A stretch of DNA of 9,388 nucleotides from J061 sp003695725 [NCBI: Candidatus Schekmanbacteria bacterium] (GTDB lineage: Bacteria > Schekmanbacteria > GWA2-38-11): NCBI GenBank assembly GCA_003695725.1, contig RFHX01000235.1, positions 1-9,388 of the forward strand, in the 5' to 3' direction. How positions within the stretch are numbered: the stretch's first letter is position 1; every line of letters starts with the position of its first letter. Shown here in pieces: positions 2,796-6,491 of the stretch. Under the pieces are notes generated by a model. That model did not search any database and was not told where the DNA came from. It saw only the letters and a list, made by a program, of their open reading frames with translations. The translations under genes and the position numbers were made by a program.

Positions 2796-4703
2796 ATGAC
2801 TAAAAAATTTTATATAACAACGCCAATTTATTATGTCAATGATGTTCCGCATATAGGACATGCCTATACATCGATTGCCTGCGATGTAGCTGCCCGTTTT
2901 AAACGTCTTCAAGGATATGATGTGCTATTTTCCACAGGCACAGATGAGCACGGGCAGAAGGTAGAAAAGGCGGCTACGGAAAAGGGAGAAAAGCCGATAG
3001 AATTGGCAAATAGGGTTGTGGAGAGGTTTAAATCGCTATGGAAAACTTTGAACATAAGAAATGATGACTTTATTAGGACAACAGAAGAGCGTCATAAGCG
3101 CGCAGTGGAGGAAATATTCAAGAGAATTTCAGCTAAGGGAGATATCTACGAAGGTTATTATGAAGACTGGTATTGCACTCCTTGTGAAACCTTTTGGACA
3201 GAGATGCAGCTTCAGGACGGCAAGTGCCCTGATTGCGGCAGAAAGACTGAAAAATTGAGAGAAAAAAGCTTCTTTTTTCGTCTTTCAAAATATGAAAGAC
3301 CGCTACTTGAATTTTATGAAAAAAACCCGGAGTTTATTGAGCCGCAATCGAGAAGGAATGAAATTATAAGTTTCGTAAGAGGGGGACTGCGTGATTTGAG
3401 CATCAGCCGCACATCATTTCGTTGGGGAATTCCAGTGCCCGGAAACAATGAGCATATAATTTATGTATGGTTTGATGCTCTTATCAATTATTTAACTGTA
3501 GCAGGATTCCCTGATGATGAGGAGAAATTCAAAAGGATGTGGCCATGTGATATTCATGTAATCGGCAAAGATATCCTTCGATTTCATTCTGTCTATTGGC
3601 CTGCATTCTTGATGTCGGCAGATATTGAACCTCCTAAAAAGGTATTTGCCCATGGATGGTGGACCATTGACGGAAAAAAGATGTCGAAATCTCTGATGAA
3701 TGTAGTTGAACCAAATCATCTTGCAAAAGAATTTGGCGTTGATACAGTACGTTATTTTCTGTTGAGAGAAGTCCCCTTTGGACTTGACGGAGATTTCTCC
3801 CATTCAGCTCTTATCCACCGCTACAATTCAGACCTTGCAAACGATTTAGGAAACCTTTTTTCACGCTCTCTTGCGATGATTCATAAATATAGAAAAGGAA
3901 TTTTACCTTCTACAGATGAGTCTGCCTTTGCAGAGGGAGTGGAAAAAGAATTGTGTGAAAAAGCGCTTAAGAGTTATGAAGAATTTTCAACCTATACGGA
4001 TTCTTTATCCTTCAGCAAAGCGCTTTCTTCACTCTGGCTCCTTTTAAATGAAGTCAATAAATATATAGACCATAAGGCTCCGTGGGCATTGGCAAAGAAA
4101 GGAGACGATGAAGAGCTGGACAAAGCGCTGAATATCATCTTTAGATGCCTCAAGATATGTACAGTATTGATTCATCCTTATATGCCGGCAAAATCTAATG
4201 AAATGTGGAAATCCTTAGGTATGAAAGGCAATATCATTGATCTTGCACCAATAACTTTTGCCAAGCTGTGGAGTGTTGAGGGAGAGATTAAAGTTGAAAA
4301 ACTGAAAGCTCTTTTTCCAAGAATCGAAAAAGATGAAAAGAAGAAGGCTGATGGTGAAGAAAAAGAAGGAAAAGAGGAAGAAATGATAACAATCGATGAT
4401 TTTGCAAAGTTGAAATTGAAAGTTGCAACAATAGTAAAGGCTGAAAAAGTTCCCAAATCTTCAAAGCTTATTCGACTTGAAGTCGATGATGGAGATGGTA
4501 TTAGACAGATTGTAGCGGGTATTGCACAACATTATGATGCAGAGAAACTTGAAGGAAAGCAGATAGTAATTGTGGCAAATCTAAAACCGGTAAAGCTTAT
4601 GGGAATTGAATCTCAGGGGATGCTTCTTGCCGCAAGTGATGATGAAACTCTTGCCATCATTACACCTGAAGGAGTCGTAAAAAACGGCGCAAAAGTAAGA
4701 TGA
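2796..4703 (+). CDS. metG: Methionyl-tRNA synthetase with C-terminal tRNA-binding domain
   Basis: A class I synthetase that charges tRNA-Met with methionine in the cytoplasm. The 635-aa protein opens with the Rossmann fold motif FYITTPIYYVN and HIGH at 19-22. A zinc knuckle is visible as C127/C130 and C144/C147, so it belongs to the four-cysteine, single-knuckle type. KMSKS is at 295-299. The anticodon-binding helical domain follows, roughly 340-500. A charged Lys/Glu-rich linker around 508-529 leads to an OB-fold EMAPII/Trbp111-like domain at about 530-635 (VATIVKAEKVPKSSKL, VAGIAQHY and the LMGIESQGMLLAAS region), which gives dimerisation and non-specific tRNA binding in known MetRS proteins. 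All catalytic motifs are intact. It sits 11 nt after the lipoprotein gene and overlaps the TatD fusion gene by ATGA. Confidence 0.98.
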   Translation: MTKKFYITTPIYYVNDVPHIGHAYTSIACDVAARFKRLQGYDVLFSTGTDEHGQKVEKAATEKGEKPIELANRVVERFKSLWKTLNIRNDDFIRTTEERHKRAVEEIFKRISAKGDIYEGYYEDWYCTPCETFWTEMQLQDGKCPDCGRKTEKLREKSFFFRLSKYERPLLEFYEKNPEFIEPQSRRNEIISFVRGGLRDLSISRTSFRWGIPVPGNNEHIIYVWFDALINYLTVAGFPDDEEKFKRMWPCDIHVIGKDILRFHSVYWPAFLMSADIEPPKKVFAHGWWTIDGKKMSKSLMNVVEPNHLAKEFGVDTVRYFLLREVPFGLDGDFSHSALIHRYNSDLANDLGNLFSRSLAMIHKYRKGILPSTDESAFAEGVEKELCEKALKSYEEFSTYTDSLSFSKALSSLWLLLNEVNKYIDHKAPWALAKKGDDEELDKALNIIFRCLKICTVLIHPYMPAKSNEMWKSLGMKGNIIDLAPITFAKLWSVEGEIKVEKLKALFPRIEKDEKKKADGEEKEGKEEEMITIDDFAKLKLKVATIVKAEKVPKSSKLIRLEVDDGDGIRQIVAGIAQHYDAEKLEGKQIVIVANLKPVKLMGIESQGMLLAASDDETLAIITPEGVVKNGAKVR

Positions 4704-6073
4704 TAATAGAAACACATTCCCATCTTTCATTTCCAGATTTCAAAGATGACCTTCCAGATGTATTGAAAAGGGCAAGAGAAAAGGGAGTTGAAGTAATAAT
4801 AACCGTCTCTGCTGATATTCTATCGACAAGAGAAAATGCAAAGATTGCAAAACAAGAGGAAAGAGTTTTTTTTACTCCCGGGATTCATCCACATGATACA
4901 GACAATGCCAAAGAGGAGTATTTTAGGGAGATAGAAGAAATCCTCAAAAGGGATAAACTTGCTGTGGCAGTTGGCGAGACAGGGCTTGATTTTTACCGCA
5001 ATCATTCAACGCGCAAAAGACAGGAAGAATCGTTCATTCGTTTTATAGATATTGCGAAGAGGCTTAATAAGCCATTAGTAATCCATTGTAGGGATGCTTA
5101 CAGTCGTCTTTCAGAAATAATAGAGTCCGAAGAAGCAGGAATTGCAGGCGGAGTTGTCCACTGTTTTTCAGGAGATTACAATTTTGCCAGAACGATTCTT
5201 GATAATGGATTTTTTATTGGCGTGGGAGGTACTATCACTTATCCAAAGTCGAATGCCATTCGTGAAGTCATAAAGAGAGTCCCTATGGAGAGAATAGTCC
5301 TTGAAACAGATTGTCCATATCTTGCTCCTCAAGCGGTAAGGGGTAAAAGAAACGAGCCTTCATTTCTCACATACATAATCGATGAGATTGCCCTTTTGAA
5401 AGGATTATCCAATAGCGATGTAGCGAGGGTAACATCTTTAAATGCAAGCACGCTCTTTTCTCTTGGTGTCGTAAATCCTCAATCTGTCATAACCTACAGG
5501 ATAAGAGATTCGCTTTATGTGAATGTTACAAATCGCTGTTCCAATAAGTGTGTCTTTTGCCGCCGCGAAGAAGACCCTATTGTAAAGGGACATCTTTTGA
5601 AACTTGGAGAAGAGCCATCAGCAGAAAGAATTATCGAAGAAATCGGGAATCCTAAAAATTATGATGAAATTGTCTTTTGCGGATATGGAGAACCATTGAT
5701 TAGATTGGCAATAGTAAAAGAAGTTGCAAAGTGGGTAAAGGCAAAAGGAGGAAAAGTAAGGATAAACACAAATGGACAAGCAAATTTAATCCATAAAAGA
5801 AATATAATTCCTGAACTTGAAGGACTGGTTGACAGAATATCAATCAGCCTCAATGCTCATAATGCGGAAGTTTATGAAAAACTCTGTCCCTCGGAATTCG
5901 GTCCAAAGGCATATGAAGAGATCATTAAATTTGCTAAGGAGGCAAAAAGATTTATTCCTGATGTAACATTGACTGTTGTGTCTTTAGAGGAAGTTGATAT
6001 TGAAAAGTGCAAAAACATTGCTGAGTCAGTGGGCGCTAATTTTAGAATTCGTGAATATAATGTAGTAGGGTAA
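4700..6073 (+). CDS. TatD-family metal-dependent hydrolase fused to a radical SAM domain
   Basis: A two-domain 457-aa protein. Residues 1-256 are a full TatD (YcfH-type) TIM-barrel hydrolase with the expected metal ligands: H6 and H8 (ETHSH), E93 (GETGLD), H129 (VIHCR), H154 (HCFSG) and D204 (ETDCPYL). TatD homologues have 3'-5' DNA exonuclease activity. Residues about 266-457 are a short radical SAM domain: C280-x3-C284-x2-C287 for the [4Fe-4S] cluster, preceded by YVNVTNR, then the SAM-contacting GYGEP at 328-332, NTNG at 356-359 and a SISLNA strand at 381-386. No extra cysteine-rich (SPASM-type) domain follows. I recall a curated family of TatD-associated radical SAM proteins; here the two are one polypeptide with no stop or frameshift between them. 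The radical SAM substrate is unknown. The start overlaps the metG stop (ATGA), so translation is probably coupled. Last gene of the operon. Confidence 0.93.
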   Translation: MIIETHSHLSFPDFKDDLPDVLKRAREKGVEVIITVSADILSTRENAKIAKQEERVFFTPGIHPHDTDNAKEEYFREIEEILKRDKLAVAVGETGLDFYRNHSTRKRQEESFIRFIDIAKRLNKPLVIHCRDAYSRLSEIIESEEAGIAGGVVHCFSGDYNFARTILDNGFFIGVGGTITYPKSNAIREVIKRVPMERIVLETDCPYLAPQAVRGKRNEPSFLTYIIDEIALLKGLSNSDVARVTSLNASTLFSLGVVNPQSVITYRIRDSLYVNVTNRCSNKCVFCRREEDPIVKGHLLKLGEEPSAERIIEEIGNPKNYDEIVFCGYGEPLIRLAIVKEVAKWVKAKGGKVRINTNGQANLIHKRNIIPELEGLVDRISISLNAHNAEVYEKLCPSEFGPKAYEEIIKFAKEAKRFIPDVTLTVVSLEEVDIEKCKNIAESVGANFRIREYNVVG

Positions 6074-6100
6074 AAAAAGAAGGGATGATTTTTTCATCCC
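6072..6100 (-). terminator. Hairpin terminator, best for hup, possibly bidirectional
   Basis: GGGATGA (6082-6088) and TCATCCC (6094-6100) form a perfect 7-bp stem with a 5-nt loop. On the - strand the stem is followed by TTC and then seven Ts (6078-6072), a good intrinsic terminator for hup. On the + strand it begins 8 nt after the tatD-rSAM stop but is followed by CTCCAAATTTT, a poorer U-tract, so termination of the + operon is less certain. Confidence 0.8.
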
Positions 6101-6109
6101 CTCCAAATT

Positions 6110-6122
6110 TTCACCCTTACCA
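6110..6122 (-). repeat. Right-hand (3' UTR) arm of a 13-bp inverted repeat flanking hup
   Basis: TTCACCCTTACCA on the + strand, so the hup mRNA carries TGGTAAGGGTGAA between its stop codon and its terminator hairpin. It is the exact reverse complement of 6439-6451. Adjacent + strand AAAAGG at 6123-6128 adds a further 6-bp complementarity to CCTTTT at 6425-6430, which includes part of the hup SD. Confidence 0.85.
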
Positions 6123-6144
6123 AAAAGGTTGATGTTGACACTTT

Positions 6145-6417
6145 TTATTTTACTTTGTTCTTTAATGCTGCGCCCGGACTGAATTTTGGAACCTTCCTTG
6201 CCGGAATAACAATTTCTTTTCCTGTTTGCGGATTTCTGCCTTTTCTCTTTTTTCTTTTTGATACTCCAAATGTGCCAAACCCTACTAAAGTAACTTTGTC
6301 CCCCTTTTTTAGACTTTTAGTAACTGAATCAATAAAACAATTTAAAGCTTTTTCTGCTGCTGCTTTGGAGATATTGGCTGCTTTAGCCATTTCTGCTACA
6401 AGATCTCCTTTGTTCAT
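6145..6417 (-). CDS. hup: DNA-binding protein HU
   Basis: A small nucleoid-associated protein that binds and bends DNA as a dimer. At 90 aa it has the standard length and covers the whole HU fold: the N-terminal helices [18 protein letters not shown].., the turn around [12 protein letters not shown] (39-50), and the DNA-intercalating beta-arm with the family signature [11 protein letters not shown] at 58-68, where P63 is the tip proline. The C-terminal FSPG..LK helix is present. HU is more likely than IHF because the N-terminus and arm match the homodimeric HU type. The start is supported by a strong SD (AGGAGG, 4 nt before the ATG) and a consensus promoter. It is monocistronic, convergent with the tatD-rSAM gene, and separated from the USP gene by 140 nt. 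Unusually, its UTRs carry complementary 13-nt elements. Confidence 0.97.
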
Positions 6418-6421
6418 GATA

Positions 6422-6427
6422 CCTCCT
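6422..6427 (-). promoter_or_regulatory. hup Shine-Dalgarno site, partly in a predicted long-range pairing
   Basis: AGGAGG in the mRNA, spaced 4 nt (UAUC) from the AUG. Its first three bases belong to AAAAGG, which is complementary to CCTTTT in the hup 3' UTR (6123-6128). If the mRNA ends pair, part of this SD would be occupied. Confidence 0.75.
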
Positions 6428-6438
6428 TTTCAGGTTAG

Positions 6439-6451
6439 TGGTAAGGGTGAA
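6439..6451 (-). repeat. Left-hand (5' UTR) arm of a 13-bp inverted repeat flanking hup
   Basis: The hup mRNA reads TTCACCCTTACCA here, predicted to start about 6 nt from its 5' end if transcription begins near 6456. It is a perfect reverse complement of the element at 6110-6122. The flanking bases do not match on either side, so the repeat is exactly 13 bp. Confidence 0.85.
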
Positions 6452-6462
6452 TTTCTAATAAA

Positions 6463-6491
6463 ATTATAAGTCTGAAATCCTTGCCTGTCAA
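6463..6491 (-). promoter_or_regulatory. Perfect-consensus sigma-70 promoter of hup
   Basis: On the - strand TTGACA (6491-6486) is separated by exactly 17 bp from TATAAT (6468-6463), an exact match to the sigma-70 consensus at both boxes with optimal spacing. The start would fall near 6456, giving a 5' UTR of about 39 nt. This fits the high expression known for HU genes. Confidence 0.88.

What the first reader, a model, noticed from the sequence alone, without database searches (positions are those of the whole stretch)
6110..6451. Predicted 5' end to 3' UTR pairing in the HU mRNA
A perfect 13-bp inverted repeat (TTCACCCTTACCA / TGGTAAGGGTGAA) flanks hup. With the consensus promoter at 6463-6491, one arm lies about 6 nt from the 5' end of the mRNA and the other 9 nt before the terminator stem. 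Directly beside it, AAAAGG of the 5' UTR (including part of the SD) is complementary to CCTTTT of the 3' UTR, for 19 bp in two blocks with an 8-nt bulge. A mRNA closed on itself this way could protect its 5' end from decay and tune SD access for an abundant nucleoid protein. 3' UTR pairing with a 5' UTR SD is established for icaR of Staphylococcus aureus; I know of no such case for HU.
Basis: partly seen in the sequence, partly recalled or inferred. Interest (0 to 1): 0.8.

Follow-up and report, generated by a model that had tools for sequence, protein, structure and literature searches.

The report
HU mRNA with paired ends
The two ends of the messenger RNA for the DNA-packing protein HU are complementary and probably pair with each other in this unnamed bacterium and its nearest held relative, a layout already known for the HU messenger of Bacillus, so it looks like a separately evolved example of a known way to protect an abundant message.

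Summary
The inverted repeat is real: TTCACCCTTACCA (6451-6439, -) and TGGTAAGGGTGAA (6122-6110, -) flank hup behind a 12/12 consensus promoter and just before an intrinsic terminator. As a bare repeat it is unremarkable, but three results make it credible as RNA pairing. (1) The only relative held with this hup (G001, same family, HU 79% identical) keeps an 11-bp core of both arms while the rest of the UTRs diverged, with one compensatory change (T-A to G-C). (2) Among 472 genes sampled from the two genomes, the two hup genes rank first and second for UTR complementarity. (3) Full-length folds give the helix a mean pair probability of 0.92-0.96. It is not general to hup: a mismatched-pair control over 230 hup loci is flat. 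An unrelated genome (G017) has its own 17-bp version. Shine-Dalgarno tuning is not supported by folding. Most likely role: closing the leader against RNase E/Y entry. New member of a known kind, probably convergent.

The parts
6463..6491 (-). sigma-70 type promoter TTGACA-17-TATAAT; start near 6456-6454 is inferred from spacing
   Evidence: 12/12 consensus; the same 12/12 promoter with a 17-nt spacer in G001
6439..6451 (-). 5' arm TTCACCCTTACCA, about 3-5 nt from the predicted 5' end
   Evidence: sequence; mean pair probability with the 3' arm 0.92; 10 of 11 core positions identical in G001
6421..6427 (-). Shine-Dalgarno AGGAGGT, possible weak partner of the 3'-UTR stretch 6129-6123
   Evidence: two-strand fold of the isolated UTRs; low probability in the full mRNA
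6145..6417 (-). hup, 90-aa HU protein
   Evidence: ORF; best NCBIfam match HU-beta, 9.7e-34, below its curated cut-off
6123..6129 (-). ACCTTTT, candidate anti-SD directly beside the 3' arm (ACCTTCT in G001)
6110..6122 (-). 3' arm TGGTAAGGGTGAA
   Evidence: sequence; 10 of 11 core positions identical in G001, the one change being the compensatory A to C
6078..6104 (-). intrinsic terminator stem-loop, then T run; 5 nt after the 3' arm
   Evidence: the G001 terminator begins 6 nt after its 3' arm (position)
4700..6073 (+). convergent TatD/radical SAM gene ending at the terminator region (context)
   Evidence: same arrangement in G001

Best explanation
The hup mRNA is probably closed on itself: about 13 nt next to its 5' end pair with about 13 nt just before the terminator hairpin, bringing 5' leader, terminator and 3' end together. 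Shown by sequence and comparison: the arms, their placement, and their conservation in one relative with one compensatory change. Predicted: the helix forms in the full transcript. Inferred: its main effect is to make the 5' leader double-stranded and so slow entry of RNase E/G and RNase Y (both encoded; no RNase J over the family cut-off), so that the message of an abundant nucleoid protein lives long. This is the logic reported for the hbs mRNA of B. subtilis, probably reached independently. My odds: the pairing exists in the RNA about 0.8; decay control is its main role about 0.55.
For: G001 keeps an 11-bp core (TTCACCCTGAC/GTCAGGGTGAA): one substitution in each arm, at the same pair, T-A to G-C. 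Core arms are 10/11 and 10/11 identical, against 5/12 in the 5' spacer and 15/32 columns in the 3' UTR before the arm (my anchored alignment). Position is kept: 12/12 promoter upstream and terminator 6 nt after the arm, same gene neighbourhood. Rank 1 and 2 of 472 genes. The top three of 230 hup loci by z are G017, window, G001; mismatched partners reach their energy in 0/80 and 0/80 for each of the three. Mean pair probability 0.92 and 0.96 at 37 C, 0.91-0.98 at 25-60 C. G017 has an unrelated 17-bp helix whose 5' arm begins 7 nt after an 11/12 promoter. Positive control: a 12-16-bp helix in 16 of 23 scored loci of a Bacillus-like family. RNase Y and RNase E/G over cut-off in G000, G001 and G017, RNase J not. 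[quoted passage not shown]
Against: Only one informative relative and one compensatory change; in G001 the last two pairs of the window helix are lost (C-A and T-T). The automatic alignment of the two 3' UTRs does not put the arms in register; the identity figures rest on my anchoring. About 3-5 nt at the predicted 5' end stay unpaired (4-6 in G001), enough for RppH in principle (it needs two, preferably three; passage of PMC7144940), so end protection would be incomplete. Helices of similar raw energy turn up by chance: L067 -25.8, L185 -25.7, L266 -24.8 against -26.1; in the gene background the third best is -22.6 against -23.0 for G001. In a full-duplex score L034 ranks first, and window and G001 are reached by 1/120 and 2/120 mismatched pairs. 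The order-level relatives and the HU paralogues of G000 and G001 do not show it (7 loci). No RNA data.
Confidence: 0.55

Rival explanations
1. icaR-like control: the closing helix helps the 3'-UTR stretch ACCTTTT mask the Shine-Dalgarno, damping HU synthesis, perhaps with RNase III cleavage of the duplex.
For: In isolated UTRs AGGAGGU pairs with ACCUUUU (window) and ACCUUCU (G001, one G-U becoming G-C) beside the main helix; the stretch CAACCTT is kept in the diverged 3' UTR (sequences); G017 has AGGGGGU/ACCCUCU in its two-strand duplex.
Against: Probability 0.02 (window), 0.11 (G001), 0.00 (G017) free, and 0.09, 0.31, 0.00 with the CDS held open. Cutting before the 3' arm changes the SD opening cost by 0.1-0.8 kcal/mol, mostly towards a less open SD. 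Seven G-U-tolerant pairs to an SD are, by my estimate, easy to get by chance.
Confidence: 0.15
2. The two arms are DNA operator sites for a repressor that loops the gene, not an RNA helix.
For: The 5' arm lies just downstream of the promoter, a usual operator place, and two inverted copies 316 nt apart could bind a looping protein. TTCACCCTKACC at up to 1 mismatch is twofold more frequent than its reversed control in G000 (35 vs 17).
Against: In G001 the excess is small (37 vs 30); whether those matches lie in promoters was not examined. The parallel change at one position of both copies is natural for pairing, less so for operators. G017 has a different sequence with the purines on the 5' side.
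Confidence: 0.08
3. Chance complementarity that happened to persist in one relative.
For: Inverted repeats of 12-14 nt are common (14 pairs of at least 12 nt in this window); helices of nearly equal energy occur among other hup loci and genes.
Against: Rank 1 and 2 of 472 for orthologous genes, arms kept where the neighbouring UTR diverged, and a compensatory change.
Confidence: 0.15
4. A processing stalk, as around rRNAs: the helix is cut by RNase III to mature or inactivate the mRNA.
For: Geometry matches flanking inverted repeats that pair across a gene; RNase III cuts long-range intramolecular duplexes in B. subtilis (passages of PMC11780869); RNase III moderately affects hu mRNA half-life in S. 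aureus (passage of PMC3386247).
Against: 13 bp is short for RNase III; the RNase III gene was not searched here; free hu mRNA of S. aureus was not efficiently cut in vitro and its authors suggest an antisense RNA instead.
Confidence: 0.07

Closest known systems
Bacillus subtilis hbs (HU) mRNA 5'/3'-UTR interaction (Braun, Durand & Condon 2017; paper not held, known here through passages of reviews)
   Same: HU-encoding mRNA; one helix of about 14 nt between 5' and 3' UTR. In the Bacillus-like helix found here the 3' arm also stands directly before the terminator, as I read the sequences.
   Different: Arm sequences are unrelated. In the Bacillus-like loci the 5' arm begins 57-59 nt before the start codon; here it begins 34 nt before it and next to the predicted 5' end. 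G452, a Bacillus-like genome, has RNase J and no RNase E/G over the cut-offs; this genome has RNase E/G and RNase Y but no RNase J over the cut-off.
Staphylococcus aureus icaR mRNA 5'/3'-UTR pairing (abstract text and passages of PMC3868564)
   Same: 3' UTR of the same mRNA pairs with its 5' UTR; a candidate anti-SD stretch is present here.
   Different: In icaR the UCCCCUG motif pairs with the SD itself and makes an RNase III substrate; here the strong helix is upstream of the SD and SD masking is only weakly predicted.
Type I toxin mRNAs with 5'-3' long-distance interaction (hok, AapA; passages of PMC6733600)
   Same: 5' end and 3' end of one mRNA paired.
   Different: Those lock a toxin mRNA until 3' processing; here the product is HU and no SD-locked state is predicted.

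Membership tests
hbs-type HU mRNA 5'/3'-UTR interaction | mRNA encodes HU | tested here: met
   (HU-beta-like, below the curated equivalog cut-off)
hbs-type HU mRNA 5'/3'-UTR interaction | about 14-nt helix between 5' UTR and 3' UTR | tested here: met
   13 bp in the window, 11 bp in G001, by sequence and prediction only
hbs-type HU mRNA 5'/3'-UTR interaction | arms homologous to the Bacillus arms | tested here: not met
   CTGTGAAGAAATGA/TTATTTCTTCACAG in Bacillus-like loci (taken to be the published helix by inference) against TTCACCCTTACCA/TGGTAAGGGTGAA
hbs-type HU mRNA 5'/3'-UTR interaction | helix covers an RNase Y site and stabilises the mRNA | not testable with these tools
   RNase Y is encoded; cleavage sites unknown
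hbs-type HU mRNA 5'/3'-UTR interaction | RNase J as the 5' exonuclease in the decay route | tested here: not met
   no RNase J match over the cut-off in G000 (best 53.7 bits against 400); assembly 97.84% complete
icaR-type anti-SD 3' UTR | 3' UTR masks the SD | tested here: inconclusive
   weak predicted pairing
icaR-type anti-SD 3' UTR | duplex cleaved by RNase III | not tested
   needs an experiment; RNase III gene not searched
Type I toxin mRNA (hok, AapA) long-distance interaction | encodes a small toxin | tested here: not met
   product is HU-like
Known Rfam RNA element | matches a covariance model at its gathering score | tested here: not met
   0 matches in the window

The most novel reading that the evidence does not exclude
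HU mRNAs have independently evolved 5'/3'-UTR closure in at least three unrelated lineages (Bacillus, this phylum, and the phylum of G017), with unrelated arm sequences and different nuclease sets, which would make end closure a recurrent solution for this one abundant message rather than a Bacillus peculiarity.
Probability: 0.4. Interest if true: 0.65.

Novelty: new member of a known kind. Interest (0 to 1): 0.45.

Why it matters
If true, the B. subtilis hbs pairing is not a curiosity: HU messages outside Bacillus, in genomes with RNase E/G and without a recognised RNase J, would use the same geometry. That would make recurrent selection for end closure of HU mRNA directly testable, and would give a simple sequence rule (one arm beside the promoter start, one arm just before the terminator) for finding other closed bacterial mRNAs.

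Tried and rejected
General property of hup: rejected. Among 230 distinct hup loci the matched UTR pairs are no better than mismatched pairs (flat rank histogram; full-duplex version roughly flat too). Some Bacteroidota loci (L047, L099, L089) looked promising at the promoter end, but as I read the printed UTRs of 41 loci their neighbours do not keep the arms, and the 5' arm of L067 lies upstream of its -7 box. L085, L048 and L034 pair the SD region with a terminator arm; I judged them chance. L007 looked like TTCACC/GGTGAA by eye but is not significant. Mobile-element ends: rejected, since the 13-mer occurs only as this pair. Rfam: none. Mended errors of my own: the first register of the second block; a wrong CCTT place for G001 (redone); a wrong CDS length for G017 (redone, same conclusion).

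Rows dropped: L001, L002, L122, L123 and L158-L177 were left out beforehand, L120, L121, L156 and L157 fell below my score limit, L264 was too short, and loci with the same 60 nt upstream plus CDS were merged, leaving 230. They come from the 80 best of 533 relatives and from loci, not from all matches (in one search, 164 of 386 genomes had a match at 1e-20). In one search, 31 loci were given and L340 was not scored. In one search, 30 loci were given, 7 (L372-L378) were not recognised by my string search, and 23 were scored: 16 with a 12-16-bp helix (one a duplicate), 7 without. The gene background covers only part of both genomes and uses a crude gene caller that requires an SD-like motif.

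Not in print: I make no claim beyond my six answered paper searches, seen as listings with starts of abstracts.

Full report
What is there. The window holds hup (6417-6145, - strand, 90 aa) with a gene resembling universal stress proteins (weak match, 3.1e-05, below the cut-off) and an anion symporter upstream on the same strand, and a convergent TatD/radical SAM gene (4700-6073, +) downstream. The promoter TTGACA-17-TATAAT matches 12 of 12. TTCACCCTTACCA (6451-6439) follows it, and TGGTAAGGGTGAA (6122-6110) stands 5 nt before the terminator stem 6104-6078. The 13-mer occurs only as this pair in the assembly.

Is it more than chance? As a repeat alone it is not striking: 14 inverted pairs of at least 12 nt within 600 nt exist in the window, 2 of them perfect. 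As complementarity between the 65 nt before the start codon and the 100 nt after the stop codon it is: -26.1 kcal/mol of stacking, 0 of 200 shuffles; 0 of 80 and 0 of 80 mismatched partners of similar base composition, and 0.10% of 3,956 low-GC mismatched pairs reach it, 0.48% reach the -23.0 of G001. Among 472 genes sampled from this genome and G001, the two hup genes rank first and second, at -26.1 and -23.0; the third is -22.6, so the margin of G001 alone is small.

Relatives. The phylum has 4 genomes in the collection. G001, in the same family, has this hup (79% identical protein) in the same neighbourhood with a 12/12 promoter and a terminator. Its arms are TTCACCCTGAC and GTCAGGGTGAA: one change in each arm, at the same pair, T-A to G-C. 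Two outer pairs of the window helix are lost in G001. The core arms are 10/11 and 10/11 identical, the 5' spacer 5/12, the 3' UTR before the arm 15 of 32 columns; these figures rest on my anchoring, since the automatic 3'-UTR alignment leaves the arms out of register. The two other genomes of the order have only distant HU genes (33-40% identity) without such pairing, and the paralogues in G000 and G001 lack it too (7 loci in all).

Folding. In the full transcript the closing helix has mean pair probability 0.92 (window), 0.96 (G001) and 0.96 (G017) at 37 C; at 25-60 C the values lie between 0.91 and 0.98. The whole mRNA folds with z = -2.17 against shuffles, 2 of 100 at least as stable. SD pairing is weak: 0.02 (window), 0.11 (G001), 0.00 (G017) free; 0.09, 0.31, 0.00 with the CDS held open. 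Cutting the RNA before the 3' arm changes the cost of opening the SD by 0.3/0.8 (window), 0.1/0.1 (G001) and 0.3/0.4 kcal/mol (G017), free and CDS open. So the predicted effect is on the 5' leader and not on the SD.

Other lineages. Of 230 distinct hup loci, three lead by z: G017 (17 bp with one G-U, -38.5), window and G001; there is no matched-pair excess overall. In the full-duplex score L034 leads by z, then G017, G001 and window. G017 is the only genome held of its phylum, so its case cannot be tested by comparison; its 5' arm begins 7 nt after an 11/12 promoter, and its arms have the opposite purine/pyrimidine sense, so they are not homologous to those here. In the stretch scanned (to 80 nt after the 3' arm) no intrinsic terminator was found on the hup strand.

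Known precedent. Reviews state that the B. subtilis hbs mRNA, which encodes HBsu (the HU of Bacillus, from general knowledge), has a 14-nt 5'/3'-UTR interaction that protects it from RNase Y cleavage in the 5' UTR (passages of PMC7821165; PMC8406224; gene product in PMC7509114). The original paper is not held. In a Bacilli sample of 30 scored loci, L331 showed CTGTGAAGAAATGA/TTATTTCTTCACAG, and 16 of 23 scored loci of that family have a 12-16-bp helix at this place, with the 3' arm directly before what reads as the terminator.

Mechanism. G000, G001 and G017 have RNase Y and RNase E/G over the family cut-offs and no RNase J over the cut-off; G452, the Bacillus-like genome, has RNase Y and RNase J but no RNase E/G over the cut-off. 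[quoted passage not shown] the same review also names mRNAs that are not stabilised this way. A leader paired from about nt 4-6 onward would hinder entry, though the 3-5 free nt may still allow RppH, which needs two and prefers three (passage of PMC7144940). I therefore prefer decay control of an abundant message, by analogy with hbs, at 0.55, with icaR-like SD masking, chance, operators and RNase III processing as rivals.

Verdict. Observation confirmed; interpretation partly supported; a precedent for HU exists. New member of a known kind, probably of independent origin; the recurrence across lineages is the part worth following.

Noticed in passing
L008 (G017), 1454-1470 and 1824-1840: A 17-bp helix (one G-U) TGTGGGCAGGGTGGACA / TGTCCACCCTGCTCACA joins the start of the predicted hup transcript to its 3' UTR in a genome of another phylum; strongest of 230 hup loci by z.
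   Followed up: partly
L363, L364, L333, L366-L371: The hbs-like helix is 16 bp in two Bacillus-like loci and not found in a sister group (L333, L366-L371), where the 3' UTR reads CAGTTTC(A/G)CACT at that place; a good set for testing loss and compensation.
   Followed up: partly
L266 (G194), L249 (G127): Predicted 12-14-nt pairing of the hup SD region with the 3' UTR, icaR-like; not distinguished from chance.
   Followed up: no
window 6071-6122: The terminator region lies between hup and the convergent TatD/radical SAM gene; read-through on the + strand would make an RNA containing a copy of the hup 5' arm, which could compete for the 3' arm (inference).
   Followed up: no
G000, G001, G017 whole genomes: These genomes carry RNase Y and RNase E/G together and have no RNase J match over the cut-off.
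   Followed up: partly
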